Origin: Lautropia mirabilis
GTDB lineage: Bacteria > Pseudomonadota > Gammaproteobacteria > Burkholderiales > Burkholderiaceae_E
DNA: 64,000 nucleotides
Assembly: GCF_900637555.1 (NCBI RefSeq)
Contig: NZ_LR134378.1
Span: 1,994,001 to 2,058,000 of the forward strand
Direction of reading: 5' to 3'
Position numbers and translations under genes: made by a program
The notes under the pieces: model-generated
Told to the model about the DNA's origin: nothing
The model's input: the letters and a program-made list of their open reading frames with translations, nothing else
Databases searched by the model: none
Part shown: positions 8,906 to 32,115 of the stretch, one piece after another
Numbering within the stretch: the first letter of the stretch is position 1
Layout: each line of letters starts with the position of its first letter

Positions 8906-9724
8906 ATGCCTGACATCTCTCGCTTCTCTGTCATTGTTTCCGGTATTTCCGGTGTTTTCCGATCGTTTCAGGGGCGTGCGCACCCTGTTGCTGAAAGGCA
9001 ACGGACAGGGCTTGTGCTGTCGCTGATGGTGGCGGGCAGCCTGGGTGTCGGGAGCGTTCAGGCTCAGACGACGGTGCTGCCATCCGGGAAGGTGATGGAG
9101 GTGCAGGCGGCTGATGGAACCGCGGGGGCCGGGAAGGCGGCGGCTTCCAGGATGACGGCAGCCCAGGGGCAGGGAATCGCCCAGCTGCGGCGCTTTGCCA
9201 CCCGAACGCCGGCCGCGACGGGCACGTTCGTGCAGACGCAGCTGGCAGGTGGCGGGCGCGGCGGTGCGGCGCGTTCCAGCGGCAGCTTTGCGTTCGCGCG
9301 GCCGGGCAATTTCCGCTGGGAAATCGACAAGCCTGATCCGCAGCTGATCGTGACGGACGGGAAGAAGCTGTATTTCTACGATGAAGGACTTCGGCAGGTG
9401 ACGGTCCGCGAGGCCAGCGAAGCGATCCAGGCCACGCCGGCGGCGGTGCTGTTCGGCGTGGGCGATCTGGACGAGGCGTTCAAGCTGTCGGAAGTGGGCC
9501 AGTACAACGGGGTCGCCTGGGTGGAAGCGGTGCCCCGCTCGGCCGACAGCGGTTTTGACCGGATCCGGATCGGGATGCGGGACGGGCTGCCGGTGGTGAT
9601 GGAGGTGGTGGATGCATTTGGGCAGATCAATCGCTTCGAGTTTTCCAAGCTGGCCACGAATGAGCGGATTCCGGCTGAGCGCTTCCATTTCAAGGTACCG
9701 GCCGGCGTGGATGTGCTGGAGTGA
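8906..9724 (+). CDS. lolA: Outer-membrane lipoprotein carrier protein LolA
   Basis: Periplasmic chaperone, 272 aa, that takes lipoproteins released by LolCDE to LolB. The mature part shows the LolA pattern: 'GTFVQTQL', then 'SSGSFAFARPGNFRWEID', 'LIVTDGKKLYFYDEGLRQV' and a C-terminal 'RFHFKVPAGVDVLE'. The signal peptide ends 'GSVQA' before QTT, but about 35 residues precede its hydrophobic core and no better in-frame start is visible. The ribosome site before ATG 8906 is poor. A Gly/Ala-rich stretch of about 30 residues separates signal and domain, which explains the length above the usual 200 or so. It is followed 24 bp later by rarA. A strong lipoprotein sorting system suits the lipoprotein cluster at 24-31 kb. 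Confidence 0.92.
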   Translation: MPDISRFSVIVSGISGVFRSFQGRAHPVAERQRTGLVLSLMVAGSLGVGSVQAQTTVLPSGKVMEVQAADGTAGAGKAAASRMTAAQGQGIAQLRRFATRTPAATGTFVQTQLAGGGRGGAARSSGSFAFARPGNFRWEIDKPDPQLIVTDGKKLYFYDEGLRQVTVREASEAIQATPAAVLFGVGDLDEAFKLSEVGQYNGVAWVEAVPRSADSGFDRIRIGMRDGLPVVMEVVDAFGQINRFEFSKLATNERIPAERFHFKVPAGVDVLE

Positions 9725-9748
9725 CTGGCGCATCAGGGAGCAAGCGTG

Positions 9749-11221
9749 ATGGATGGTGATCTGTTCGACGATCTGCCCGAGGCGGTGCCGGAACAGGTAC
9801 CGCTGCAATCGCGGACACAGACCCAGGTTGAGGCTCAGACCGCCACCCAGGCACGAGGGGCTGCGACCGGAAACAGCAGTGGCGTGCCGCTGGCCGAGCT
9901 GCTGAGGCCGGCGACGCTGGATGAGGTGATCGGGCAGAAGCACCTGCTGGGACCGGAGAGGCCGCTGCGACTGGCATTCGAGTCGGGGCAGCCGCATTCG
10001 ATGATCCTCTGGGGGCCGCCGGGTGTGGGCAAGACCACGCTGGCACGGCTGACGGCGAACGCCTTCGGGCATGAATTCATTGCGCTGTCGGCTGTCTTTT
10101 CGGGGGTGAAGGATATCCGCTCCGCGATGGAGCAGGCTGAGCGCAACCTGCAGGCGGGACGGCACACCATCCTCTTCATCGACGAGATCCACCGTTTCAA
10201 CAAGGCGCAGCAGGATGCCTTGCTGCCTTATGCGGAATCAGGGCTGATCACGCTGATCGGGGCAACGACCGAGAATCCGTCCTTTGAGGTGAATTCCGCG
10301 CTGCTGTCGCGCGCTCAGGTCTATGTGCTGAAGTCGCTGGACGATGAGGAGCTGAAGGCCCTGGTCGAGCGAGCGCGGGCACGCGCACTGCCGGAACTGG
10401 AGTTCGAGCCGGCGGCCATCGACACGCTGGTGGGCTATGCCGACGGCGACGCGCGACGGATGCTGAACCTGCTGGAGCAGACGGCAACTGCCGCGCGGGC
10501 AGCCGGGGTGGCGCAGATCACGCCGGCCTTCCTGGAGCAGGCGCTGTCCCTGAATGCGCGGCGCTTCGACAAGGGCGGCGACAGCTTCTATGACCAGATC
10601 TCGGCCCTGCACAAGTCGGTGCGGGGATCCAACCCGGATGCAGCGCTGTACTGGCTGTGCCGGATGCTGGATGGCGGAGCAGATCCGCGCTACCTGGCAC
10701 GTCGCATCGTGCGGATGGCGTGGGAGGACATCGGGCTGGCAGACCCGCGCGCCATGCAGCTGGCCAACGATGCGGCGGCCACCTATGAACGCCTGGGCAG
10801 CCCCGAAGGCGAGCTGGCCCTGGGGCAGGTCGTGATCTATCTGGCCATGGCGGCCAAGAGCAATGCAGGCTACATGGCCTACAACCAGGCGGCTTCCTTC
10901 GTGAAGAAGGACAAGTCACGACCGGTGCCGGTCCACCTGCGCAACGCACCCACCAAGCTGATGAAGGAGCTGGGTTACGGCCATGCCTATCGTTACGCGC
11001 ATGACGAGCCCAATGCCTATGCCGCCGGTGAAACCTATCTGCCGGAAGGGATGCGCGAGCCGGGCTGGTACAAGCCTGTGCCGCGCGGGCTGGAGCTGAA
11101 GATCGGCGAGAAGCTGACGCAGCTGCGGGCGTGGGATGCGGAGGCTCGGCGTCGTGAAAGAAGCAAGGCAAGAAGCACTGCGTCGCCTCATGATACGGTA
11201 TCGAACCAGGAAGAGCAGTAG
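9749..11221 (+). CDS. rarA: Replication-associated recombination protein RarA (MgsA)
   Basis: AAA+ ATPase, 490 aa, of the RarA/WRNIP1 family that acts at stalled replication forks. Residues 1-45 or so are Gln/Thr-rich and variable. Walker A is 'GPPGVGKTTLARL' and Walker B 'LFIDEIHRFNKAQQDALLP'. Sensor 1 is 'GATTENPSFEVNSALLSR', and 'DGDARRMLNLLE' follows. The C-terminal MgsA tetramerisation part includes 'SAMEQAE' neighbours and 'GYMAYNQA'. ATG 9749 has AGGGAG 8 nt upstream; the GTG one codon earlier is less likely. The lolA-rarA pair followed by serS is a conserved betaproteobacterial order, here interrupted by aroG and a lipoprotein gene on the other strand. Confidence 0.96.
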   Translation: MDGDLFDDLPEAVPEQVPLQSRTQTQVEAQTATQARGAATGNSSGVPLAELLRPATLDEVIGQKHLLGPERPLRLAFESGQPHSMILWGPPGVGKTTLARLTANAFGHEFIALSAVFSGVKDIRSAMEQAERNLQAGRHTILFIDEIHRFNKAQQDALLPYAESGLITLIGATTENPSFEVNSALLSRAQVYVLKSLDDEELKALVERARARALPELEFEPAAIDTLVGYADGDARRMLNLLEQTATAARAAGVAQITPAFLEQALSLNARRFDKGGDSFYDQISALHKSVRGSNPDAALYWLCRMLDGGADPRYLARRIVRMAWEDIGLADPRAMQLANDAAATYERLGSPEGELALGQVVIYLAMAAKSNAGYMAYNQAASFVKKDKSRPVPVHLRNAPTKLMKELGYGHAYRYAHDEPNAYAAGETYLPEGMREPGWYKPVPRGLELKIGEKLTQLRAWDAEARRRERSKARSTASPHDTVSNQEEQ

Positions 11222-11262
11222 AGCAAGTAGTAGAGCAGCTCGTTTCAGGTGCTTTTCGATGT

Positions 11263-11286
11263 TGCAGGGGCCGCGTTGCCCCTGCA
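11263..11286. terminator. Stem-loop between convergent rarA and aroG
   Basis: 9-bp perfect stem TGCAGGGGC/GCCCCTGCA with loop CGCGTT, lying between two convergent genes. T-tracts are poor on both sides. Confidence 0.45.
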
Positions 11287-11320
11287 CGGCCCTGTCGCGA
11301 CTGAAAGGGCCTGAACCGCT

Positions 11321-12427
11321 TTACCGTCCCTGTGTCTGGCGCCGCTTGCGCACCGCCTGCGCCAGTGTCTGCAGCACGGGAATGGTCTGTTCCATGCTCA
11401 GGCAGGCGTCGGTGACGGAAACGCCGTATTGCAGCGGCTGGCCGGGCACAATGTCCTGCCGGCCTTCGTTCAGGTGGCTCTCGATCATCACGCCGGTGAT
11501 GCGGGCATCGCCTGCGGCGATCTGGCCGGCCACGTCCTGGGCCACATCGATCTGGCGACGATGCTGCTTGCTGCTGTTGGCGTGCGAGAAGTCGATCATC
11601 ACCTGTTCGCGCAGGCCGTTCTTCGCCAGCAGCTGGCAGGCAGCATTCACGTCGGCAGCGCTGTAGTTGGGGGCCTTGCCGCCGCGCAGGATGATGTGGC
11701 AGTAGGGGTTGCCGTGGGTCTCGAAGATGGCGGCCACGCCCATCTTGGTGATGCCCATGAAGGCGTGTGAGGCCTGGGCGGCCAGAATGGCGTCGGCTGC
11801 CACTTTCACGCCGCCGTCGGTGCCGTTCTTGAAGCCCACGGGACAGGACAGGCCGCTGGCCAGCTGGCGGTGGCTCTGGCTTTCGGTGGTGCGTGCGCCG
11901 ATGGCGCCCCAGCTGATGAGTTCGCTGATGAACTGGGGCGAGAGCAGGTCGAGGAATTCGGTGGCGACGGGCATGCCGAGCTGCAGCACGTCCAGCAGCA
12001 GCCTGCGGGCCATTTCCAGGCCCTGGTTGATGGCGTAGCTGTCGTCCATGTGCGGGTCGTTGATGTAGCCCTTCCAGCCGACGGTGGTGCGGGGCTTCTC
12101 GAAGTAGACACGCATCAGGATGAGCAGGTCGTCGGAGAGGGCGTCGGCCTGCGCCTTGAGCTGGCGGGCGTAGTCCATGGCCTGGGCGTGGTCATGGATG
12201 GAGCAGGGGCCGACGACGACCAGCAGGCGATCATCCTGGCCGGAGAGGATGCGGCAGACGGCTGCACGGCTGTCCTCGACAAGCTGGGTGGTGGTGTCGG
12301 GGGCAGGCAGCCATTCCTGCAGCAGGGCCGGGGTGATGAGGGGGCGTATCGCCTTCATGCGGGTGTCGTCCACCCGGCGGGTGCTGCTGGGGTCGAGCGG
12401 GGTGGCCGTGCGTGCTGCGGTGGTCAT
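11321..12427 (-). CDS. 3-deoxy-7-phosphoheptulonate synthase (DAHP synthase), class I alpha type
   Basis: First enzyme of the shikimate pathway, 368 aa, condensing phosphoenolpyruvate with erythrose 4-phosphate. Family motifs are visible: 'VVVGPCSIHD' (metal-binding Cys), 'RVYFEKPRTTVGWKGYINDP', 'WGAIGARTTESQ', 'GFKNGTDG', 'HIILRGG' and 'DFSHANSSKQ'. The N-terminal region fits the AroF/AroG/AroH type with a feedback-inhibitor site, but which amino acid controls it cannot be read from sequence. The gene stands alone, convergent with rarA. A -10 box and a 14-bp palindrome lie upstream. Confidence 0.95.
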   Translation of the reverse strand: MTTAARTATPLDPSSTRRVDDTRMKAIRPLITPALLQEWLPAPDTTTQLVEDSRAAVCRILSGQDDRLLVVVGPCSIHDHAQAMDYARQLKAQADALSDDLLILMRVYFEKPRTTVGWKGYINDPHMDDSYAINQGLEMARRLLLDVLQLGMPVATEFLDLLSPQFISELISWGAIGARTTESQSHRQLASGLSCPVGFKNGTDGGVKVAADAILAAQASHAFMGITKMGVAAIFETHGNPYCHIILRGGKAPNYSAADVNAACQLLAKNGLREQVMIDFSHANSSKQHRRQIDVAQDVAGQIAAGDARITGVMIESHLNEGRQDIVPGQPLQYGVSVTDACLSMEQTIPVLQTLAQAVRKRRQTQGR

Positions 12428-12459
12428 GGTCTGGAAGCCCTGGATGTCGTTTTGCTTCC

Positions 12460-12465
12460 AGTATA
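12460..12465 (-). promoter_or_regulatory. Candidate -10 box for the DAHP synthase gene
   Basis: TATACT on the minus strand, 33 nt before the start codon. It predicts a short leader of about 26 nt. The matching -35 is weak. Confidence 0.5.
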
Positions 12466-12506
12466 TTGCTCTGCAGCACTCATCGCCTCCCTCGGCGCGT
12501 GCGAGG

Positions 12507-12520
12507 AAGGGTTAACCCTT
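12507..12520. promoter_or_regulatory. 14-bp palindrome, possible operator
   Basis: Perfect palindrome AAGGGTTAACCCTT about 60 bp upstream of the transcription start predicted for the DAHP synthase gene. It does not resemble a TyrR box. The binding protein, if any, is unknown. Confidence 0.4.
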
Positions 12521-12674
12521 GGGGAAGTGGTCTGGGCGCAGGGGGCCCAAGGTGGGGCTGGGCAGGCCATGACCGAAGGTATGATCCGGGCGGGCATGGG
12601 CCGCCCGCCTTTGGCCTTACGACGTGTCCTGCCCGGGCATGAGGAATGGCCCGGGCGTGCAGGTCGGAAACGGT

Positions 12675-14075
12675 TCAGTCGGTCAGTTCGAGAATGACGA
12701 CGTGCTTGTCGGCCAGCGGCCAGGTGCGGCCGGCGATGCGCTCGTTGTTGAAGCGGGCGACGACGGTCTCGGGCGTGTCGCTGAGCGACTTCATGCGCGA
12801 GGTGGAGACACCCGCAGCGCCACGGGGCGGAATGCCCGGGGGCGGAACCGCGCGGCCGAAGGACATGGTGTCGCGGCGCACGTCGAAGTAGCCGCGCGGC
12901 CGGCTCATGATGACCATGGCCCGGGCGTCCGGGTCGGCATGCACGATCCGCTGCAGGCGGAAGTTGACGATGTCGCTGCTGCGCGGGAAGGGGCTCCGGT
13001 AGATGTGGTGCGTGGGGTAGCCCGGCGCACTGATCACGAATTCATAGGTCTGGCTGCCGCTGGCCTGGAAGCCGCCCCAGCGGCCGTTGGTGCCGGTGCG
13101 CTGGCTGTGGACCGGGGTCTGGCTGGTGCGGATGCCGGTGTTGGCATCGACGGTGTAGACCTCGACCTGAGCGCCCTTGAGCGGCAAGTTGGTGGGAAAG
13201 CCGCCGTTCTGGCCTTCCACGCCGCTGACCATGCCATCCAGCGTGACGTCCTGTTCAGCCACGATCTCGGGCTGGGCAGGCGCCTTGCCGGTGATGAACT
13301 GATGCATGACGCTGAAGGCTGCCGCGGAATGGGCCACTTCACGGTGGTCGGCGCCGGGCAGGATCTGGTTCCGGGCGCCCTTGAGTGCCTGGCTTTCGGG
13401 GCGGATGTTGGTGCTGAGCAGCGGGTTGCCGATCCACTCGCCGGTGGGCTGGGCGTACTTGTCGTTGTTGTCGGAACGCAGGGTGAGCCACTGGATGCCG
13501 GTGGGCACTTCGTTGCCCTGGGCGTCCTTGGGCCGGTTCAGGCCCTTCAGGAAGTTGGACAGGCCCGAGAACTCGCTCTGTTCGCGCAGGCCCTTGACGG
13601 CCCAGACGCCATGGGCGGGCGTGCCGGCCAGAATGGCGTGGCTGACGCTGGCCTGGCCATCGCCGTTCTGGATGTAGTTGCGGATGGCGTTGCCGCCACG
13701 GCCGCTGCCGATGAGGATGACCTTGTCGGTCTTGTCCCGGGCCTTGATGGCGGCGACTTCGGCTCTCAGGTAGGCCATGTAGTCGGCGCTGCTGCTGCGG
13801 CCGGCCTGGGGCTGGGTGTCGTCGTCACGCGCGTAGGGGTAGGGCAGATTCAGCGTGTGCAGCTTGGCGGTGGGCCAGCCGTTGGACTCGAAGCGCCACA
13901 GCATGGTCTGCCAGCTGGCGGCGCTTTCGCCGTTGTCGTGCACGAACAGGATGGACGGGTGTGTATCGAGGGCTGCGGGCCTGATGACGTTGCAGCCTGC
14001 CAGCAGCAGGACGCCGAGACCCGCGGCTTGCAGGGTTCGGCGTTTCGGGGCTCGAAACTGGGGTTTCGATGACAC
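12675..14075 (-). CDS. Lipoprotein with alpha/beta-hydrolase-like fold, nucleophile apparently lost
   Basis: Exported lipoprotein of 466 aa. The leader has a KRR pair and a lipobox LLAGC near residue 28, so Tat export is possible. The body looks like an alpha/beta hydrolase: 'SILFVHDNGESAASW' early, the nucleophile-elbow region 'VILIGSGRGGNAIRNYI', and 'GADHREVAHS' as a candidate catalytic His. At the elbow the G-x-S-x-G centre is Gly125, so the usual serine nucleophile is absent or shifted by one. The last 170 or so residues form a beta-rich domain. I chose GTG 14075 because GGAGG lies 5 nt upstream; ATG 14096 has no ribosome site. The gene sits between aroG and divergent serS. Substrate and function are unknown. 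Confidence 0.7.
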   Translation of the reverse strand: MSSKPQFRAPKRRTLQAAGLGVLLLAGCNVIRPAALDTHPSILFVHDNGESAASWQTMLWRFESNGWPTAKLHTLNLPYPYARDDDTQPQAGRSSSADYMAYLRAEVAAIKARDKTDKVILIGSGRGGNAIRNYIQNGDGQASVSHAILAGTPAHGVWAVKGLREQSEFSGLSNFLKGLNRPKDAQGNEVPTGIQWLTLRSDNNDKYAQPTGEWIGNPLLSTNIRPESQALKGARNQILPGADHREVAHSAAAFSVMHQFITGKAPAQPEIVAEQDVTLDGMVSGVEGQNGGFPTNLPLKGAQVEVYTVDANTGIRTSQTPVHSQRTGTNGRWGGFQASGSQTYEFVISAPGYPTHHIYRSPFPRSSDIVNFRLQRIVHADPDARAMVIMSRPRGYFDVRRDTMSFGRAVPPPGIPPRGAAGVSTSRMKSLSDTPETVVARFNNERIAGRTWPLADKHVVILELTD

Positions 14076-23170: not shown

Positions 23171-23224
23171 GCCGTGCAGCCGTGCAGCCGTGCAGCCGTG
23201 CAGCCGTGCAGCCGTGCAGCCGTG
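23171..23224. repeat. 8-bp tandem repeat (GCCGTGCA) x 6.75
   Basis: Six perfect copies plus six matching bases of the next unit, lying 75-130 bp upstream of the GlcG-like start codon. Octamer repeats of this kind change copy number by slipped-strand mispairing. Confidence 0.9.
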
Positions 23225-23909: not shown

Positions 23910-24000
23910 GGAGAGATGGATGAGTGGTTTAAGTCGCACGCCTGGAAAGCGTGTAAGGGTTAATAGCCCTTCGGGGGTTCGAATCCCCCTCTCTCCGCCA
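23910..24000 (+). tRNA. tRNA-Ser (anticodon GGA)
   Basis: 91-nt class II tRNA: acceptor GGAGAGA/TCTCTCC, anticodon loop CTGGAAA (reads UCC/UCU), long variable arm, T-loop GGTTCGAATCC, encoded CCA. Confidence 0.96.
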
Positions 24001-24092
24001 CACATTCCGCGCTGAGATCCAGCCACTTCCTGTCAGCCTCCTTCGTTCTGATGGGAGAGCGGGCAGCTCAGATGGCCTTCTTCGGTGCCTTG

Positions 24093-24130
24093 AAACCCGG
24101 CTTGTCGTCATGGCAGCCGGGTTTTTTCTT
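24093..24130 (+). terminator. Intrinsic terminator downstream of tRNA-Ser(GGA)
   Basis: 9-bp stem AACCCGGCT/AGCCGGGTT with a 12-nt loop, then TTTTTTCTT. It is about 95 nt after the tRNA. Confidence 0.75.
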
Positions 24131-24202
24131 GTGCGCGCATGGCGTGCCGGGCTTGGCAATTTGCGTGGGGCCTGCCGCACGTTGCGCCACGCCCGCCAAG
24201 CG

Positions 24203-24253: not shown

Positions 24254-26212
24254 TCAGCGGCTGGCCCAGTTACGTTCCTCGCCGGCCTTCACGTCCTTGA
24301 TGGTGTAGCCCAGGTGCACCAGCGGCTGGCCTTTCTTCCAGCCGGCAGGCACTTGCCACCGGTTGCAGTAGATGCGCTGGGTCTTCGGCAGCTTGTAGTT
24401 CCAGCAGAGATCGGCGATGTTCTTACCATTGACCATCACCATCAGTTGTACCGTGTTTCCGCCGTTCTTCCACTCGAAGATTTGGCTGGCTGAAGCCACC
24501 TGCTCCTCGTAGCCGATGGTCTCGGTCTTGCCGGTATAGCTCACGCCCTTGTCGTAGCTGAAGGTTGGTTCGTCGGTGGCTGTCAGCGTGCCGCCCAGGG
24601 TGACGCCATTTGCACCGTTGGTGACGGGCAGGGACATGGTGACCTGGTCCACGTCATAGTTCGCATCACCGCCTCCGTCGGTATCCTTGCCGCCGTTGAA
24701 GGTGAAGTAGGTATAGCTGCCTTCAGCCGGCGTGTAGCCGCCCGGGGTACCGTTGCGTTCGCCGGCATAGCCCTTGTCTCGGCTTTGGGTAGCACTGATT
24801 CGCGGGGCATTGGCCATGCCTTGCGGGTAGCCGATGGCTTTGGGGTCATTCGACTGCCCATCGCTGTGCTGGTCCAGCATGGTGGCCAGCACGGCACCGT
24901 TGACGCCACCCGAGCCGATCGGCTCGGTGGGGTGCCGCAGCGGCTTGCGGTTGATGGCCTCGACCTCACCGTTTGCGGTCTTGCCAGCATCGGTGGCTGA
25001 GTTGTCAGCCGTCTGGCCATCGGCAGCCGGTTTCTCGTCGGCAGCAGGCTTGTCGTTTGCGGCTGGCTTTTCCGCGGCAGCAGGCTTTTCCTCAGCAGCC
25101 GGTTTGTCGTTGGCCGCGGGCTTGTCGTTGGTTGTCGGCTTCTCGTCGGAAGCGGGTTTGTCGGTGACGGCCGGCTTTTCTTCGGTCGAGGGCTTGTCGG
25201 TGGCAGCCGGCTTTTCATCGGCAGCGGGCTTGACGTCCGCAGCGGGCTTGTCACTGGCGCCCTGGACGGCCGCGGCGTCTGCCTGCGGGTTGGGCGGTTG
25301 TTGAGCACTGGCCTGTGCCTGCCGTGCAGTTTGCTGCTGTTGCTGGGCTTGCTGGGCCTGGCGTTTCTGCTCGTCGGCTTTACGCGCGTCCTCGGCCTTG
25401 CGGGCCTCTTCTGCTTTGCGTGCTGCTTCCTGGGCCTTGGCCGACTCTTCTGCCTTGCGTGCCTCTTCGCGCTTGGCCTGCTCGGCTTCAGCATTGGCTG
25501 CGGCGGCACGCTCTTGGGCGGCCTTGGCAGCCGCGTCCTGATCGGCCTTGGCCTTGGCGGCTGCCTCGGCTTCAGCCTGCTTGCGTGCTTCTTCGGCCTT
25601 GGCGGCTTCGGCCCGGGCGGCCGCTGCATCCGCTTCGGCCTTCTGGCGTTCGGCAGCCAGGCGTGCTTCTTCGGCCTTGTGCGTTTCTTCCGCACGCTTC
25701 TGGGCATCGGCGCGCTCGGCGGCCAGGCGGGCCTCTTCGGCCTGGCGGGCAGCTTCGGCGGCCGCAGCCCGTTGACGGGCAGCTTCCTGGGCAGCCTGCT
25801 CACGGGTCAGCGCCTCGCGTGCGGCGGCTTCACGGGCTTGGGCTTCGCGAGCTGCTGCAGCCTGGGCGGCAGCGGTTTGCTCGGCCGCGATGCGGTTGGC
25901 TTCTGCCTGGGTGGCTGCCGCCTGGGCCGCGGCTGCCTGCACGGCGGCCGCCTGGGAAGCAGCCCGGGCAGCCGCGGTCTGTGCGGCGCTCGGAGCCGTA
26001 GTCGGGGTTGCTGCGTTTCCGGTCAGCGAGCTTCCGTTTGCGGACGTACTGTTCGTGATGACGTTATTCGAAGCGGTACTTGCCGGACTGCTGGCAGGCG
26101 CCAACGGCCTGGACGAGATGGCAGTCGGTGCATCGCTGCCATCACCGCCACATCCCGCCAGCAGGAGCAGGACGGCGGCACTGATCTGGATTCTGTGGTT
26201 CGTAGTCGACAT
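24254..26212 (-). CDS. Lipoprotein A of paralogous family: long TolA-like stalk, KP repeats, novel C-terminal domain
   Basis: 652-residue lipoprotein. Signal peptide with lipobox LLAGC (Cys21) followed by Gly, so outer-membrane sorting is expected. Residues about 22-78 are Ser/Thr/Asn-rich. About 79-310 is an Ala/Glu/Arg/Lys/Gln stalk with 'AEEARKAE'-type units, probably helical like TolA domain II. About 314-396 holds 13 hexapeptides of form K-P-A-A-(D/N/E)-(D/E). The C-terminal domain (436-652) starts 'GVNGAVLATMLDQ' and has 'GSYTYFTFNG', 'LCWNYKLP' (Cys603) and 'IYCNRWQVPAGW' (Cys616), shared with the four neighbours below. I know no family for this domain. It may display a binding domain at a distance from the membrane. 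The ribosome site is weak; the start is fixed by its match to paralogue B. Confidence 0.85.
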   Translation of the reverse strand: MSTTNHRIQISAAVLLLLAGCGGDGSDAPTAISSRPLAPASSPASTASNNVITNSTSANGSSLTGNAATPTTAPSAAQTAAARAASQAAAVQAAAAQAAATQAEANRIAAEQTAAAQAAAAREAQAREAAAREALTREQAAQEAARQRAAAAEAARQAEEARLAAERADAQKRAEETHKAEEARLAAERQKAEADAAAARAEAAKAEEARKQAEAEAAAKAKADQDAAAKAAQERAAAANAEAEQAKREEARKAEESAKAQEAARKAEEARKAEDARKADEQKRQAQQAQQQQQTARQAQASAQQPPNPQADAAAVQGASDKPAADVKPAADEKPAATDKPSTEEKPAVTDKPASDEKPTTNDKPAANDKPAAEEKPAAAEKPAANDKPAADEKPAADGQTADNSATDAGKTANGEVEAINRKPLRHPTEPIGSGGVNGAVLATMLDQHSDGQSNDPKAIGYPQGMANAPRISATQSRDKGYAGERNGTPGGYTPAEGSYTYFTFNGGKDTDGGGDANYDVDQVTMSLPVTNGANGVTLGGTLTATDEPTFSYDKGVSYTGKTETIGYEEQVASASQIFEWKNGGNTVQLMVMVNGKNIADLCWNYKLPKTQRIYCNRWQVPAGWKKGQPLVHLGYTIKDVKAGEERNWASR

Positions 26213-26727
26213 ATTTAACCCGGTCTGTCCGTCCTGTGGACGGCAAATACTGATAAATGGTCCGTTTTCGGTGAAGCAGGAGGCGAGTCTAGCGGTAAAC
26301 CCACGCCGTTCATCCGGGCTTTGCCGGGAAGAAACATTCATTAATGTTCGCTTCCTTAGAGTGTTGCTTGGCCGAAACTGGCTTGTGTCATGGGGGCCGA
26401 CGGCAGTAGGTAAGGTGTCGTCAATGAGCCCGTGAACGGCCAGGGCAGGGCACCTGGGCAGGCAGGGGGCGCACTGTCGGTAGATGTGACGATGGGCCTG
26501 AGTGGGCACGTCGCCATGCCGTCGGACCTCCGGTGTTCGGGACGGCGATCATTGGAATGAGCCATCCCGCGAATGGAAAGCAATCGGAAGGACGGCTAAC
26601 GAAAGGAAGATCAGCGAAACAGCAGCTATTGGGAAGACAGCCTTCGGGAAGAGAGGACGTCTTTCGGGAATAAGGGCGGGGAAGAGTACCCAGGAGGAAA
26701 TGAGGCTGAGAATGGAGCCTTGGAAAG
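26213..26727. other. Intergenic region upstream of lipoprotein A
   Basis: About 515 bases with no convincing gene. The right half (26550-26720) is purine-rich on the plus strand and lower in GC than the surroundings. A 6-bp inverted repeat AACATT/AATGTT lies at about 26333-26348 and could be part of a regulatory site for the gene ending at 24254. No clear promoter hexamer pair is seen. Confidence 0.4.
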
Positions 26728-26758
26728 AAAAAAGGCGCTCCGAAGAGCGCCTTTTTTT
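26728..26758 (-). terminator. Intrinsic terminator of lipoprotein B
   Basis: The minus strand reads GGCGCTC-TTCG-GAGCGCC followed by TTTTTT. The UUCG tetraloop and U-tract are typical. An A-run on the other side makes it potentially bidirectional. Confidence 0.92.
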
Positions 26759-26805
26759 GCCTGACACGGCGCGCGGATCAGACCGCGCGCCGTGGGACTG
26801 AGGTC

Positions 26806-28257
26806 TTAGCGGGTGTGCCAGTAGTAGTGCTTTTCGGCACCGTCCACGGTGCGGGACTCGTGAATGTAGTAACCCAGGAAGGTGAGAGCCTTGCCTGCCT
26901 TCCAGTCGGCAGGGACCTGCCAGCGGTTGCAATACAGGCGGGAGGTATCGGCTTGGGTATAGTTCCAGCACAGGGTGGCACTGCTTTCGCTACTCTCGGC
27001 CAGCACGAGCTGAACGCTCTGTTTGTTCGGACCATGCCAAGTCTGGATCACACCCGCATTGGCTGCCCGAGAAACCAGCGCGCCTTTCTGGAAGCTACGC
27101 TCTTCGCCAGAGGAGAAGGTGGGAGCGGCATCAATACTAGTGTCGCCGATGTTATTGCTGGCCTTCAGCTCGTCATCCAGTTCCACCTTGTCAGCGGTAG
27201 CTTCGACTTTCAGCTTGATACCCACGGTCGCCATCGGGAAGGCGTTATCCTTGCCAGCCTTGACCACACCACCATTGAACAGGTGATAGTAGTACTCACC
27301 GTTGGCAGGCTGATAGTTGCCCGCTTGTCCCTGGCCGCCGCCCACGTAGTTGCTCGGATCCGTGTACTGCGAAGCATTGACGGTCGGTGCGTCAGCATCT
27401 TCCAGAAAATCGCCAGTGACGCCTTCGGCCGGCAGGGCTTCAAGATTGGCCTGCTGGGTGCGGTTGGTGGTCATGGCCTGGTCCAGCATGGTGGCCAGCA
27501 GCAGGCCACTCACGCCGTCGCTGGAGCTGGCGGGCACGGCATTCCGTGCGGCTGCCTGACGGGCCTCTTCTTCTTTGGCTTTGGCTTCTGCTTCTGCTTT
27601 GGCTTTGGCCTCGGCTTCTTCCTTCGCCTTGGCTGCAGCTGCGGCCTCTTCCTTGGCTTTGGCTTCAGCTTGTGCAGCCTTTTCTGCGTCTGCCTTGGCT
27701 TTGGCGTCGGCTTCTTCCTTGGCCTTGGCAGCAGCTGCGGCTTCTGCCTGTTTGCGAGCGGCTTCTTCACGAGCAGCCTTGGCCAAGGCTTCTTCCGAAG
27801 CCCTGCGCGCGGTGGTGGCCTTCTGGAGTGCGGCCTCTGCCTCTGCTGCACGCTTGTTGGCGGCCTCGGCTTCGGTACGCTTGGCATTGGCTTCCTGAGC
27901 CGCAGCCTGGGCTGCCTGCAGCGCAGCGGTGGCTTGGGCGGCTGCGTTGCGGGCTACGTTGGCCTGAGCGGCAGCCTGGTTGGCAGCCTGTTCGGCTGTC
28001 CGCTGAGCGGCAGCGTTGGCTGCAGCGGTCGCAGCGGCGTTGGAAGCGGCAGCGGATGCAGAGTTTGCTGCAGCGGCTGCTGCGGCATTAGCTGCGGCCA
28101 CATTGGCTGTAGCTGTGCTGTTCGTTGCAGTCGTCGTCGCCGACGGGCTGGCCGAGACGGCCTTGGGTGCTTCGCTGCCGCCGCCTCCACCGCCGCAACC
28201 TGCCAGGAGAAGCAGCACGGCTGCACTGATCTGAAGTCTGTTGTTTGTCGTCGACAT
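26806..28257 (-). CDS. Lipoprotein B of paralogous family: helical Ala/Lys/Glu stalk and novel C-terminal domain
   Basis: 483-residue lipoprotein whose first 21 residues (MSTTNNRLQISAAVLLLLAG + Cys) are almost identical to lipoprotein A; lipobox LLAGC followed by Gly. Residues about 45-240 are Ala-rich then Ala/Lys/Glu repeats ('AKAKEEAEAKAKAEAEAKAK'), a probable long helix. The domain at 248-483 starts 'GVSGLLLATMLDQ' and contains 'GEYYYHLFNG', 'LCWNYTQAD' (Cys430) and 'LYCNRWQVPADW' (Cys443), matching the neighbours. No KP repeats. GAGGT lies upstream of the ATG. The DNA of the stalk has lower GC than the rest of the window. Function unknown. Confidence 0.85.
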   Translation of the reverse strand: MSTTNNRLQISAAVLLLLAGCGGGGGGSEAPKAVSASPSATTTATNSTATANVAAANAAAAAAANSASAAASNAAATAAANAAAQRTAEQAANQAAAQANVARNAAAQATAALQAAQAAAQEANAKRTEAEAANKRAAEAEAALQKATTARRASEEALAKAAREEAARKQAEAAAAAKAKEEADAKAKADAEKAAQAEAKAKEEAAAAAKAKEEAEAKAKAEAEAKAKEEEARQAAARNAVPASSSDGVSGLLLATMLDQAMTTNRTQQANLEALPAEGVTGDFLEDADAPTVNASQYTDPSNYVGGGQGQAGNYQPANGEYYYHLFNGGVVKAGKDNAFPMATVGIKLKVEATADKVELDDELKASNNIGDTSIDAAPTFSSGEERSFQKGALVSRAANAGVIQTWHGPNKQSVQLVLAESSESSATLCWNYTQADTSRLYCNRWQVPADWKAGKALTFLGYYIHESRTVDGAEKHYYWHTR

Positions 28258-28410
28258 GATCTACCTCGATGGGCTGCCCTGCGGTCTACGGGAGGCGACC
28301 AAGGGCTGTTCATAATGCGAAAGCGGCGAGTTTAATAGCCGAATTCACACTTTGATTCACTCATGTCGACGTGCAACATAATTTGATGTTCTTGTGTTGC
28401 ATTGTGGATA

Positions 28411-28444
28411 CAAAAAGAAAACCGCCAGCGCGGGCTGACGGTTT
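28411..28444 (-). terminator. Intrinsic terminator of lipoprotein C
   Basis: The minus strand reads AAACCGTCAGC, a 4-nt loop, GCTGGCGGTTT (one G-T pair), then TCTTTTTG. It lies about 95 nt after the stop codon. Confidence 0.8.
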
Positions 28445-28538
28445 CGACATCAGACGCTGTGGTGATCAGGGAACGGTCGGTGCGGGTTGTGCTCGACCGT
28501 CCTTCTGGCCTGTCAGCGTTGCTGCAAGGTGCAAGGTC

Positions 28539-29555
28539 TTACTGGCCCTGCTTCCGGGTGTGCCAGTAGGTCGTGTTGCCGTCGCGCACTTCCACCAGGT
28601 AGTGGCCGGCCTTGACCAGGGGCTGACCTTCCTTCCAGCCGTGGGGCACGGTCCACTTGTTGCAGTACAGGCGGTTGGTGTCGGGCAGGTGGTAGTTCCA
28701 GCACAGGGCAGCCTGGTCATCAGCCACGCGGTTCACCAGCAGCTGCACGTTGTGGGCACCGTGCTTCCATTCGGCCACGACGCTGCCGAAGTGGATCGAG
28801 TCCGATTTGCCGAGGGTGGCACCTGCGCCGGTGTAGGTCGGGCCTTGCAGGTAGTTGCCACCGTTTTCGTCCAGTGCCACCAGATGGGTGGCCAGCGTGA
28901 CGGCGTGCTCGGTGTTGGTCACTTCCAGGTCCATGCCGATCGAGTTGACCTCGAAATGCGGGTTGGTGCCGTCGCTGACCTTGGTGCCGTTGAAGGTGGT
29001 GTAGGTGTAGCTGCCCGTGGCCGGGGTGTAGCTGCCGCCGGCGCCCGGACGCTGGCCTTCACCGGCGTAGGGGGTGCTGCGGATCTGGACCGACTGCACG
29101 ACCGGGGCGGTAGCGCCGTCCAGGATCTTGCCTTCCAGCGTGGACGGGTAGGCGTAGGCGGCGTGCTCGTCATCACCCACGTCGATGCTGCGCTGGTCCA
29201 GCATGGTGGCCAGCACGGCGCCGGTGATGCCGGTGGCCGAGATGGCAGCGGCCGGGTGCTGGGCAGCCGGCTGGGGCGGCGTGACCTGGGCGTTGTTGTG
29301 GGACGCATCCGTGCGAGGAGCCGTCGGGACGGTCGGTTGCGCGGCAGGTTGCGTGCTCGGCTGCGACACCGTCGCTGCCGGCTGCGAGGGCGCGGGCTGG
29401 GCAGCAGCGGTGCTGTTCACCGTGGTCGTGGTGTTTGCAGCAGCAGGCGTGTTGGTGGCCAGGGGCTCGGAGCTGCCGTTGCTGCCGCCACCGCAGCCGG
29501 CCAGAAGCAGCATGACGGCAGCGCTGATTTGCAGTTTGCGGGTGTTGATCGACAT
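28539..29555 (-). CDS. Lipoprotein C of paralogous family: short linker and novel C-terminal domain
   Basis: 338-residue lipoprotein: leader 'RKLQISAAVMLLLAGC' (Cys21 or so), then about 85 residues of Ala/Pro/Thr/Gln-rich linker in place of a helical stalk. The shared domain (109-338) starts 'GITGAVLATMLDQ' and has 'GSYTYTTFNGTK', 'LCWNYHLPDTNRLYCNKW' and 'VPHGWKEGQPLV'. It is closest to lipoprotein A in the domain's first half. ATG 29555 was chosen because it begins the signal peptide, with AGGTG upstream; the frame is open 144 nt further up. It is separately terminated and divergent from lipoprotein D. Function unknown. Confidence 0.85.
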   Translation of the reverse strand: MSINTRKLQISAAVMLLLAGCGGGSNGSSEPLATNTPAAANTTTTVNSTAAAQPAPSQPAATVSQPSTQPAAQPTVPTAPRTDASHNNAQVTPPQPAAQHPAAAISATGITGAVLATMLDQRSIDVGDDEHAAYAYPSTLEGKILDGATAPVVQSVQIRSTPYAGEGQRPGAGGSYTPATGSYTYTTFNGTKVSDGTNPHFEVNSIGMDLEVTNTEHAVTLATHLVALDENGGNYLQGPTYTGAGATLGKSDSIHFGSVVAEWKHGAHNVQLLVNRVADDQAALCWNYHLPDTNRLYCNKWTVPHGWKEGQPLVKAGHYLVEVRDGNTTYWHTRKQGQ

Positions 29556-30106
29556 GGTGTGCACCTGTGTTCCGAAGGGCCGGTGCCAGCAGCAACCGGC
29601 GTGAGGGGAAGGGGGAGGCAGTGATCGAGAGCTTCTGGATCGGGACAGTGCAGGAAGGTCGAGTCGGCGACCTTTCGTCGGGCTGTCAGTGCCGTGCATC
29701 GTAGGGGCTGATCCCGAAGAGGGCGCGGCAATTGGTCACATCCGGATGAAGACGAGTGGCCGATGAAGGTGAATGAACGGCCGGGGTGTGACTTTTCTGG
29801 CACTTCGGGGGACCGTCCGTCGGGAAAAGACGGACGCGGAACAGGCGCCGTGCATGGGGGGCAAAAGCGGAAGAAGGCGGGCGCAAGCCGTGTGTTGCTT
29901 GATGGCACGGTGGTGGTGACGACTTCGTCATGCAGGCCGAAAGGACGAGCATGCGGGTGCCGTTCGTCGCCCCGAAGTTGGCCGCTGGTGACGGGTTGGT
30001 TAAGGTTTCTGCCTTCGTCGGCAGCGCCTGTCCGCCAGGAGCGGGTGCTGCATGACGCGATGACGTGTTTCTGAAGTTCCTTTTCAACCGGGTAGAAGGA
30101 AAAAAG
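29556..30106. other. Divergent regulatory gap between lipoproteins C and D
   Basis: 550 bases without a convincing gene; ORFs here lack family features. It should hold promoters for both directions, but I see no strong hexamer pair. A 7-bp stem GTCCGTC/GACGGAC with a G/A-rich loop (29815-29835) may be a regulatory hairpin. AAGGA just before 30107 is the ribosome site of lipoprotein D. Confidence 0.45.
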
Positions 30107-31231
30107 ATGAGCAAGCGCAATCAATTCACGATGGGGGCAGCGCTGTTGGCGTTGCTGGCAGGCTGCGGTGGCGGTGATGGTGCCGATGCCGGCATGAGCA
30201 CGTCGTCGACCAAGGCCGTGGAGGGCCGTTCGGCCCAGCTGGCCGCCTTCACGGGTGAGGCGGCCGAGGCTGCGACGCTGGCGGCCGTGGTGAAGGCCGC
30301 CGGTGGTACGGATGCCGATGCCGCCGAACTGCAGGCGAACGTGGATCGGGCTGCCGGCCAGGAGCTGCAGGCGTCCGCACCGGGTCAGACCGAGGTGTCG
30401 GTTGCGCCGGCCTCGGCACATGCCGTGAAGGCAGTGTCGCCGTACTCGGTGTCGGGTGTGAGCGGTGCGCTGTTGTCGGCCATGCTGGATCAGCGGGTGG
30501 GCAATCGTCTGGACGAGATTGGACCGACCGACCGCACGATGCTGGTTCCGGTGACGGCCCGCAATGCCGGTCAGGTGAACGATGCGGCGCTGCCGTTCGT
30601 GACGGCGGGCTACAGCCTGACGCCCGACAACTACGTGGATGGGCAGTACCGCGCAGCCAGCAGCCGCCAGCAGCTGCAGATGTACATGCGGGTGCAGAAC
30701 CTGGGCCGCGCCAGCGCGCAGGCCACCACGCCGTTTGGCGAGTTCAACATGAACACCGCGGTGTCCACCGACGAGAACAGCGTCTCGGTGGGTGGCATGC
30801 TGCATGTGCTGTCGTGGACGCCGGAAAAACGCGCCAATGGCACGTTCAGCCGTGCTGGGGTGCCGGGCGTGACGGTGCAGCCGGGCGATTCGCGCATCGC
30901 CTTCCATCAGAGCAACCTGTATGCACCCATCGGCTTTGCGGCGCGCAAGGATCAGCTGGTGCCCTACGGCAGCATGATCCAGCAGTGGAGCGCCGACAAT
31001 ACCTACGTGCAGCTGTGGCTGCTGAAGAACGGCAGCAGCAGCCAGCCGCAGCTGTGCTGGAACTTCTGGCTGCCCAAGCTCAAGCGTACCTACTGCCAGG
31101 CCTGGCAGGTGCCGGCCGGCTGGATTGCAGGCAGCATGCTGCAGAACGGTGGCAACTTCGTCAATGACAACCGCGAGCCGCAGGGCGGTTCGGGCAATCT
31201 GTACTGGCAGCAGCTTTCGGCCGCTCAGTGA
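30107..31231 (+). CDS. Lipoprotein D of paralogous family
   Basis: 374-residue lipoprotein: leader 'MGAALLALLAGC' with lipobox LLAGC followed by Gly. About 90 residues of Ala/Glu/Thr-rich linker. The shared domain (117-374) starts 'GVSGALLSAMLDQ' and ends with 'VQLWLLKNG', 'LCWNFWLPKLKRTYCQAW' and 'VPAGWIAGSMLQ'. The middle of the domain differs from A-C ('YVDGQYRAASSRQQLQMYMRV') and is nearer to protein E, so D and E form a subgroup. ATG 30107 has AAGGA upstream. The gene is followed after 26 bp by protein E, suggesting one transcript. Function unknown. Confidence 0.85.
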   Translation: MSKRNQFTMGAALLALLAGCGGGDGADAGMSTSSTKAVEGRSAQLAAFTGEAAEAATLAAVVKAAGGTDADAAELQANVDRAAGQELQASAPGQTEVSVAPASAHAVKAVSPYSVSGVSGALLSAMLDQRVGNRLDEIGPTDRTMLVPVTARNAGQVNDAALPFVTAGYSLTPDNYVDGQYRAASSRQQLQMYMRVQNLGRASAQATTPFGEFNMNTAVSTDENSVSVGGMLHVLSWTPEKRANGTFSRAGVPGVTVQPGDSRIAFHQSNLYAPIGFAARKDQLVPYGSMIQQWSADNTYVQLWLLKNGSSSQPQLCWNFWLPKLKRTYCQAWQVPAGWIAGSMLQNGGNFVNDNREPQGGSGNLYWQQLSAAQ

Positions 31232-31257
31232 TCAACACACGGATCAGGGATACACAC

Positions 31258-32115
31258 ATGTTCAAGATGAGCAAGAAAGGGTGGGTGACGGCTGCTGCAC
31301 TGGCTGTGCTGGCAGGCAATGTCCAGGCGCAGACGGTGGCACCGTTCAGCAATACCGGCGTGAGCGGTGCGGTGCTGGCCACGATGCTGGATCAGAGTGC
31401 AGGCAGCGCCAGCAGCCATGCTGACGCCGTGAGCGGCGAGAAGGGTTCGGCCACGAACGATGTGGCGGTTCCGCCGGTCAATGCCCGCAGTGGCGTGACG
31501 CGTTATTCGCGTCCGTCCAATCCGACGATGCCGCCGCTCTACAACGTGGCCGAGCGCTATGCGTCGCTGTCGGGCACGTTCCGCTACGACCAGCGCCACC
31601 AGGTCCAGAACGACAACAAGCTGAGCACGCAGGCCACGAAGCCTTTCCGCGACCTGTGGGTGCTGACCTATCTGGCCGAGGGCCCCAACAACGTGGTGCT
31701 GGGCAACTGGTTGGCCACGCGCACGATGCTCTCGACCAACGTGGGCTTCCAGTATGGCACGCAGTTCTGGTCGCCGGCGCCGGCCGCCACCAGCTCGCTG
31801 ATGCTGACCACGCACAGTGCCTATCGCGTCCGCAAGGATGAGGAGGTGCCGTTCGGCAAGGTGCTGCAGCAGTGGCGCAACGACGAGTCCTTCGTGCAGC
31901 TGATGCTGCGCCGGGGCGAGGGCGAGAACGAGGCCCAGCTGTGCTGGAACTATGCGCTGCCCACGCTGGGCCGTCTGTACTGCCAGACCTGGCAGGTGCC
32001 GTCGGGCTGGCAGGCCGGTCAGCCGCTGGTGGATCGTGGCGTCTTCATCGATGATGACCGCGAGTACTACCACGGCGAGAGCGGCCACGTGTACTGGCGT
32101 CGTGACGTGCGCTGA
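31258..32115 (+). CDS. Secreted protein E of paralogous family (no lipobox)
   Basis: 285-residue exported protein. The signal peptide 'KKGWVTAAALAVLAGNVQA' is cleaved before QT. At the position of the lipobox Cys in its paralogues (LAGC) it has Asn (LAGN), so it should be processed by signal peptidase I and be soluble in the periplasm or outside. The shared domain starts almost at once ('GVSGAVLATMLDQ', residue 34) and ends 'LCWNYALPTLGRLYCQTW' and 'VPSGWQAGQPLV'. AGGGA lies 8 nt before ATG 31258; ATG 31267 is an alternative. It lies between lipoprotein D and a TRAP binding protein, 51 bp before the latter. Confidence 0.85.
   Translation: MFKMSKKGWVTAAALAVLAGNVQAQTVAPFSNTGVSGAVLATMLDQSAGSASSHADAVSGEKGSATNDVAVPPVNARSGVTRYSRPSNPTMPPLYNVAERYASLSGTFRYDQRHQVQNDNKLSTQATKPFRDLWVLTYLAEGPNNVVLGNWLATRTMLSTNVGFQYGTQFWSPAPAATSSLMLTTHSAYRVRKDEEVPFGKVLQQWRNDESFVQLMLRRGEGENEAQLCWNYALPTLGRLYCQTWQVPSGWQAGQPLVDRGVFIDDDREYYHGESGHVYWRRDVR

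What the first reader, a model, noticed from the sequence alone, without database searches (positions are those of the whole stretch)
24254..32115. Cluster of five paralogous exported proteins with an unrecognised C-terminal domain
Seen: five proteins in 7.9 kb (three leftward, two rightward) share a 217-258 residue C-terminal domain. It always begins G-(V/I)-x-G-x-x-L-x-x-M-L-D-Q and ends with L-C-W-N-(Y/F)...Y-C-(N/Q)-x-W-x-V-P-x-x-W. Two Cys are invariant (possible disulfide), and Trp and aromatic residues are conserved. What precedes the domain varies from almost nothing to about 400 residues of stalk. The three leftward genes are each followed by their own terminator or hairpin. Known: I can place this domain in no family. 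Inference: expansion by tandem duplication of a surface or periplasmic binding module shown at different heights above the membrane, perhaps for adhesion, glycan or peptidoglycan contact. This is my best candidate for an undescribed system.
Basis: partly seen in the sequence, partly recalled or inferred. Interest (0 to 1): 0.85.

Follow-up and report, generated by a model that had tools for sequence, protein, structure and literature searches.

The report
Expanded stalked lipoprotein family of Lautropia
Five neighbouring genes of an oral Lautropia bacterium belong to an undescribed family of exported, mostly membrane-anchored proteins that share one probably disulphide-pinned all-beta head on stalks of very different lengths; the family counts 22 genes in this genome and may make surface binding proteins, but what they bind is not known.

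The parts
24254..26212 (-). P0001, 652-aa lipoprotein: lipobox LLLLAG^CGG, 410-residue stalk, head domain
24923..26149 (-). Stalk of P0001: Ala/Glu/Lys/Arg/Gln-rich, probably helical, with two EEARKA strings, then PAADEKP-type repeats
   Evidence: helicity inferred from composition
24257..24922 (-). Head domain of P0001
26806..28257 (-). P0002, 483-aa lipoprotein: LLLLAG^CGGGGGGSEAPKAVSASP, 222-residue Ala/Glu/Lys stalk, head domain
26809..27528 (-). Head domain of P0002
28539..29555 (-). P0003, 338-aa lipoprotein, 83-residue Ala/Pro/Thr/Ser linker, head domain
28542..29243 (-). Head domain of P0003; modelled (pLDDT 88.8, pTM 0.88), nearly all beta; C181 and C194 lie equally far from the turn of a predicted hairpin
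30107..31231 (+). P0004, 374-aa lipoprotein, 92-residue linker, head domain
30443..31228 (+). Head domain of P0004
31258..32115 (+). P0005, 285 aa, signal peptide without lipobox Cys (LAGNVQA), almost no linker, head domain
   Evidence: the orthologue in L041 has a lipobox
31345..32112 (+). Head domain of P0005
26720..26765 (-). Intrinsic terminator after P0002 (GGCGCTC-TTCG-GAGCGCC, T run)
28412..28450 (-). Intrinsic terminator after P0003
24195..24236 (-). GC hairpin after P0001 (a second, weaker one at 24080-24136)
23910..24000 (+). tRNA-Ser(GGA), landmark of the locus; also beside the cluster in L. dentalis (L040) and a Lautropia MAG (L042)

Best explanation
An undescribed family of exported proteins, greatly expanded in Lautropia. 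Sec exports them. Eighteen of 22 in this genome are lipidated and, by the Gly after the lipid Cys, should go to the outer membrane; four are made without an anchor. A low-complexity or helical stalk (45-410 residues here, 32-476 in all Lautropia stretches looked at) carries a C-terminal, probably disulphide-pinned, all-beta head (two heads in 4 of 22). Most likely the heads are displayed at the cell surface at different heights, and each paralogue binds a different ligand or partner surface (host glycan or protein, or a neighbouring plaque bacterium). Shown by computation: family, architecture, copy number, genus distribution, two fixed loci with differing content, Cys co-occurrence. Predicted: lipidation, outer-membrane sorting, disulphide, all-beta fold. 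Inferred only: surface exposure and binding.
For: Family and copy number. Lipobox in 18 of 22, Gly next in 18 of 18. Linker length differs even between orthologues (P0001 410; its two L. dentalis co-orthologues 476 and 188), unlike a part that must span a fixed gap. Cys pair both present in 55 of 56 and both absent in 1; even Cys number in 55 of 56; invariant also in the 37 rows of A6 with six sister-genus proteins. Model nearly all beta, calycin-like barrels as leading but weak neighbours. Heads diverge faster than the flanking genes: orthologous heads 58-74% identical against 73-82% for DctP and PpiD in L040 and L041. In the modelled head, orthologues are more alike in regular structure than in loops (64 against 57%, 66 against 48%). 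Two loci keep their flanks across species with variable content. Lautropia forms the centre of mixed 'cauliflower' consortia in plaque (PMC8306857, passages), where contact proteins would be expected.
Confidence: 0.45

Rival explanations
1. Periplasm-facing envelope lipoproteins: the lipid sits in the inner leaflet of the outer membrane, the long helical stalks cross the periplasm, and the heads contact peptidoglycan or inner-membrane partners.
For: The default for lipoproteins sorted to the outer membrane is the inner leaflet (general knowledge). The stalk of P0002 has a sub-threshold match to tolA_full (E 0.023). No SlipAM gene lies at any of the 13 loci.
Against: Linkers of 45-120 residues in 13 of 18 lipoproteins of this genome are unlikely to cross the periplasm, and lengths vary between orthologues. 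The growth to 22 genes and fast divergence of heads are unusual for envelope housekeeping.
Confidence: 0.22
2. Type XI secretion (Slam) type surface cargo: a C-terminal barrel targets the lipoprotein, or the soluble forms, through a Slam-like outer-membrane protein, and the proteins capture haem, metal or host proteins.
Against: No sequence homology: none of 56 members hit TbpB_B_D or Lipoprot_C (name recalled) in Pfam at E <= 1; profile-profile comparison with 11 TbpB_B_D proteins gives probability 0.1%, the same as a reversed control. The weak PDB hit to haemophilin, E 0.78 with A5, is absent with A6 (31 of those rows plus six sister-genus rows), whose only hit is a glucanase at E 2.7. P0006 lies at none of the 13 loci and has its own neighbouring candidate cargo, P0007. 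P0006 relatives are in 19 of 52 genomes outside the genus; the A2 profile found no domain in any of the 52 and A5 later found remote ones in two of the 19. G005 has two remote pieces but no P0006 match.
Confidence: 0.15
3. Diversified surface coat under selection from phage, immunity or kin recognition: the value lies in the variety of heads rather than in binding a set of ligands.
For: Variable copy number and content at fixed loci; fast-changing heads.
Against: Several members keep clear orthologues in other species (P0001, P0003, P0004, P0005), so slots are conserved. Signs of frame-shifting phase variation are absent in the five genes: their tandem repeats have periods of 15-72 bases, all multiples of three.
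Confidence: 0.1

Closest known systems
Type XI secretion (Slam/DUF560) cargo with a C-terminal TbpB_B_D or Lipoprot_C barrel (TbpB, haemophilin, fHbp, Pls-like proteins; PMC12282271, PMC8406197)
   Same: Lipidated or soluble Sec substrates; low-complexity or EEARKA helical linker; C-terminal all-beta head, sometimes doubled
   Different: No detectable sequence homology; the head has its own conserved Cys pair and Trp set; genes not beside a SlipAM gene
Calycin-like barrels (FABP, lipocalin-like DUF3598, nitrobindin)
   Different: Z within the background for models without a relative; identity 4-9% in the first ten rows; calycin motifs not tested
   Same: Lipobox and Gly run (Gly-Gly-Asp in the G015 protein), then AVSG or AISG in three and TVSA or AVSA in two of the five G011 proteins, Pro-rich linker in the G011 proteins, core with CW...P...R...C; profile-profile 97%, E 6.7e-11
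   Different: 1-5 matches per genome instead of 8-34; three carry about 100 further C-terminal residues; the VP..W..G segment after the second Cys is missing

Membership tests
Outer-membrane lipoprotein (signal peptidase II) | Signal peptide ending in a lipobox | tested here: met
   18 of 22 genes of this genome by a regular-expression rule; the other 4 show no Cys at the signal's end. No SignalP run
Outer-membrane lipoprotein (signal peptidase II) | No inner-membrane retention Asp at +2 | tested here: met
   Gly follows the Cys in 18 of 18. The rule would itself not accept Asp, but the four other N-termini read hold no such Cys
Outer-membrane lipoprotein (signal peptidase II) | Exposure at the cell surface | not testable with these tools
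   Needs shaving or labelling of cells
Type XI secretion cargo | Sequence homology of the C-terminal barrel to TbpB_B_D or Lipoprot_C | tested here: not met
   Neither among the families matched by 56 members in Pfam at E <= 1; hhalign with 11 TbpB_B_D rows 0.1%, equal to the reversed control. Lipoprot_C was tested by Pfam only
[quoted passage not shown]
Type XI secretion cargo | Genes beside a DUF560/SlipAM gene | tested here: not met
   Only one SlipAM-like place in the genome at E <= 1, 2962435-2963157, sub-threshold and at none of the 13 loci
Type XI secretion cargo | Export depends on the Slam protein | not testable with these tools
   Needs a knockout or reconstitution
Calycin superfamily (FABP/lipocalin-like) | Up-and-down beta-barrel with calycin fold | tested here: inconclusive
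Any described domain family in Pfam, NCBIfam or PHROGs | Profile match at a credible E-value | tested here: not met
   56 domains against three libraries: best single hit phrog_282, E 1e-5 in one domain, absent at E <= 1 when the whole protein was scanned

The most novel reading that the evidence does not exclude
The family is a new kind of modular surface-recognition system of oral Lautropia: about two dozen disulphide-pinned beta heads on stalks of graded length, each matched to a different plaque partner or host ligand, which lets Lautropia act as the centre of multispecies plaque consortia.
Probability: 0.12. Interest if true: 0.78.

Novelty: new variant of a known kind. Interest (0 to 1): 0.52.

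Why it matters
Large paralogous families of anchored surface proteins usually mark how a bacterium meets its surroundings. Lautropia mirabilis is called a health-associated oral species (abstract of PMC7573156 in the listing), and Lautropia sits at the centre of mixed plaque consortia, but I found no described contact protein. This family gives 22 testable genes in one genome, a domain boundary, a disulphide to check, and natural variants that are unanchored, single-headed, double-headed, short- and long-stalked. The domain itself deserves a family entry.

Tried and rejected
Rejected: haemophilin as a homologue (E 0.78 with A5; absent with A6; profile-profile with TbpB_B_D 0.1%). phrog_282 (E 1e-5 in one of 56 domains; absent when the whole protein was scanned; tblastn of that domain against phages gives only E 4 to an integrase). 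Matches of stalks to SMC, TolA, a YSIRK lipase (E 6.7e-5, 21 bits against a cut-off of 650) and DNA polymerase III tau: low-complexity, far below cut-offs. Haem or iron function from the FecCD transporter beside the uvrA-linked cluster: present in 3 of 7 genomes with that cluster in hand (own, G001, G003), absent in G002, G004, G006 and G007, where the stretches taken run about 6-8 kb beyond the last family gene. Phage or plasmid origin: no tblastn match of P0005 at E <= 0.01 in phages or plasmids; of 9 pattern matches for P0003 in viral contigs none encodes a relative. No search for integrases or mobile elements at the loci was made. A sorting role for the KAVSASP-type motif: my regular expression finds it in 5 of 17 family lipoproteins and 0 of 4 other lipobox ORFs, some probably not genes (that call missed one family member, L046), so undecided. 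Absence told here only: no solved fold stands out in the VIA list.

Literature: listings seen for 'Lautropia mirabilis' (30 of 234 papers), Lautropia with lipoprotein (15 of 62), with rosette (0), HMPREF0551 (2 of 2), Lautropia, cauliflower and plaque (8 of 8), 'Lautropia mirabilis' with adhesin (12 of 17), and any three of Lautropia, genome, paralog and surface protein (10 of 2,897, none with Lautropia). No title or abstract there concerns this family; the rest was not looked at. Passages were read in PMC12282271, PMC8406197, PMC8306857 and PMC5774410, and section 15 of PMC12282271 whole.

Rows dropped: of the 70 unique domain pieces, 51 went into A5; the 19 left out are 14 truncated pieces and 5 copies of the window's own domains; the five window domains were then added, giving 56. 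A6 uses 31 of those 56 plus 6 sister-genus rows. Of the 18 TbpB_B_D places, 16 loci were looked at and 11 kept; the five dropped were three wrong-frame picks, a duplicate and a long divergent protein.
Full report
WHERE IT IS. The window is a 64-kb piece of a single-contig 3.17-Mb genome, 99.87% complete. Its genus-mates are Lautropia: the contig length of G001 equals that of L. dentalis KCOM 2505 (NZ_RRUE01000001). The genus has two named species, so the window is probably L. mirabilis; that name is inference.

THE OBSERVATION. Five genes carry one C-terminal domain. Each domain is recovered by a profile of the other four with E between 4e-39 and 3e-53, against a best shuffle score of 8.1 bits in 5 x 200 shuffles. 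P0001-P0004 have a lipobox LAG^CG; P0005 has a signal peptide without the Cys. The three leftward genes are each followed by a terminator or hairpin, although the automatic scan of the region shows no excess of terminator-like sites.

NO KNOWN FAMILY. The five proteins were scanned against Pfam and NCBIfam, and 56 domains from eight Lautropia genomes against Pfam, PHROGs and NCBIfam. Nothing credible was found in the domain; single weak hits are discussed under Tried and rejected. A profile of the 56 domains against all PDB sequences gives one hit, haemophilin at E 0.78, which is absent with the profile A6 that adds sister-genus rows (its only hit is a glucanase at E 2.7).

HOW BIG THE FAMILY IS. 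A profile from the window domains, refined on the fetched loci, finds 22 genes with 26 domains in this genome, at 13 loci; the whole-genome search with the 56-domain profile also gives 26 matches. The nine Lautropia genomes have 26, 32, 8, 27, 33, 2, 34, 30 and 10 matches in the order G000 to G008; the genome with 2 (G005) is 81% complete in 720 contigs and its two pieces look like the remote type. Outside the genus: 1 of 369 class genomes, the window's own, at E <= 0.001; 2 of 398 phylum genomes at E <= 0.01, the own one and a 35-residue match with stops at E 0.003; in the family, 11 of 74 genomes: nine Lautropia plus G011 with 5 matches (best 5.4e-7) and G015 with 1 (0.005). In the order with A6, 5 of 399: four Lautropia and one at E 0.0048. 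In some searches the genomes are a sample and at most 7 candidates per genome were scored, so sparse remote relatives can have been missed. Six proteins read from G011 and G015 (5 + 1) are lipoproteins of the same build: lipobox with following Gly, AVSG or AISG in three and TVSA or AVSA in two of the five G011 proteins, a Pro-rich linker in the G011 proteins, and the CW...P...R...C core. Profile against profile the two sets match at 97%, E 6.7e-11. So the domain is probably older than Lautropia, and the great expansion was seen in Lautropia alone. No relative of P0005 was found in phages or plasmids at E <= 0.01.

ANATOMY. Eighteen of 22 genes have a lipobox followed by Gly, which predicts sorting to the outer membrane (the sorting rule is general knowledge). 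Four, including P0005, have a signal peptide without lipobox. The P0005 orthologue in L041 has a lipobox while that of L. dentalis lacks it, so anchoring has changed at least once. Between Cys and head lie 45-410 residues in this genome and 32-476 in all stretches looked at, mostly Ala/Ser/Thr/Pro/Gly-rich, in some members Ala/Glu/Lys-rich and probably helical. The head ends within 31 residues of the C-terminus in 21 of 22 genes; L053 has a 280-residue tail. Four genes have two heads. Several members share (K/R)AVS(A/S)SPxAP shortly after the Cys (5 of 17 by the narrow rule).

EVOLUTION. In a quick tree of the 56 domains (SH-aLRT support only) the window's P0003, P0004 and P0005 each group with orthologues from G001 and G002, and P0001 with two from G001, with support of 99-100, while P0002 stands apart. 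The duplications therefore predate those species. Two of the 13 loci were compared across the genus. The window locus lies beside DctP and PpiD in this genome, G001, G002, G004 and G008, with 5 genes here, 5 in L040, at least 3 in L041 (whose contig ends there), 2 in L042 and 3 in L130; tRNA-Ser(GGA) was found in the window, L040 and L042, and L130 was not scanned. The second lies beside a gene that I take for uvrA from its sequence (recalled, not scanned) in this genome and in G001, G002, G003, G004, G006 and G007; a G008 stretch with one family gene showed no uvrA. Flanking genes stay while the number and kind of heads differ. Orthologous heads are 58-74% identical against 73-82% for the flanking DctP and PpiD in L040 and L041. 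Whether mobile elements act at the tRNA was not examined.

MECHANISM, AND HOW SURE. Favoured: anchored, stalked binding heads on the cell surface (0.45). The length differences between orthologues argue against a part that must span a fixed distance. Fast-changing, multiplied heads fit contact with changing partners, and Lautropia forms the centre of mixed 'cauliflower' consortia in plaque (PMC8306857, passages). Against: nothing shows the outer face, and no ligand is known. Rivals: periplasm-facing envelope proteins (0.22), type XI secretion cargo (0.15), a diversified coat (0.10); the rest is unknown. The type XI rival deserves the test because the overall plan resembles that of predicted cargo (PMC12282271 section 15), down to an EEARKA helix in P0001, and because Slam-like P0006 relatives occur in 8 of 9 Lautropia genomes and in G011 and G015, though also in 17 other genomes without a domain match. 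Homology to the cargo barrels and linkage to a Slam-like gene were tested and not met, so it cannot be filed there.

VERDICT. Real, larger than reported, an undescribed domain family in a familiar role class. Interest 0.52: solid novelty of the family, weak knowledge of function.

Noticed in passing
L062:7857-9308 and 9557-13033 (G000:C1 about 2961856-2967032, outside the window): A Slam/type-XI-like TPR plus barrel protein (P0006, sub-threshold SlipAM) lies between miaB and a 1158-residue FecR plus Pro-rich protein (P0007) whose C-terminal part weakly matches TbpB_B_D (E 0.042): a candidate type XI pair in Lautropia.
   Followed up: partly
window 23171-23224: A perfect 8-base tandem repeat, 6.8 copies of GCCGTGCA, between an MFS permease gene and an HbpS-like gene; the period is not a multiple of three.
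   Followed up: no
L043:1348-4489 (G000:C1 about 971347-974488): A FecCD-type ABC uptake system sits beside the uvrA-linked cluster of four family genes here and in G001 and G003, but not in the stretches from four other Lautropia genomes.
   Followed up: yes
L054:7771-9621: A GNA1162-like and a CsgG-like gene lie, on the opposite strand, directly after the two double-headed family genes.
   Followed up: no
L053:4249-6201: One family member carries a 280-residue Ala-rich tail after the head, the only such case among 22.
   Followed up: no
L097, L099 (G005): The one same-genus genome without the expansion has two pieces that resemble the sister-genus type; it may mark when the expansion began.
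   Followed up: partly
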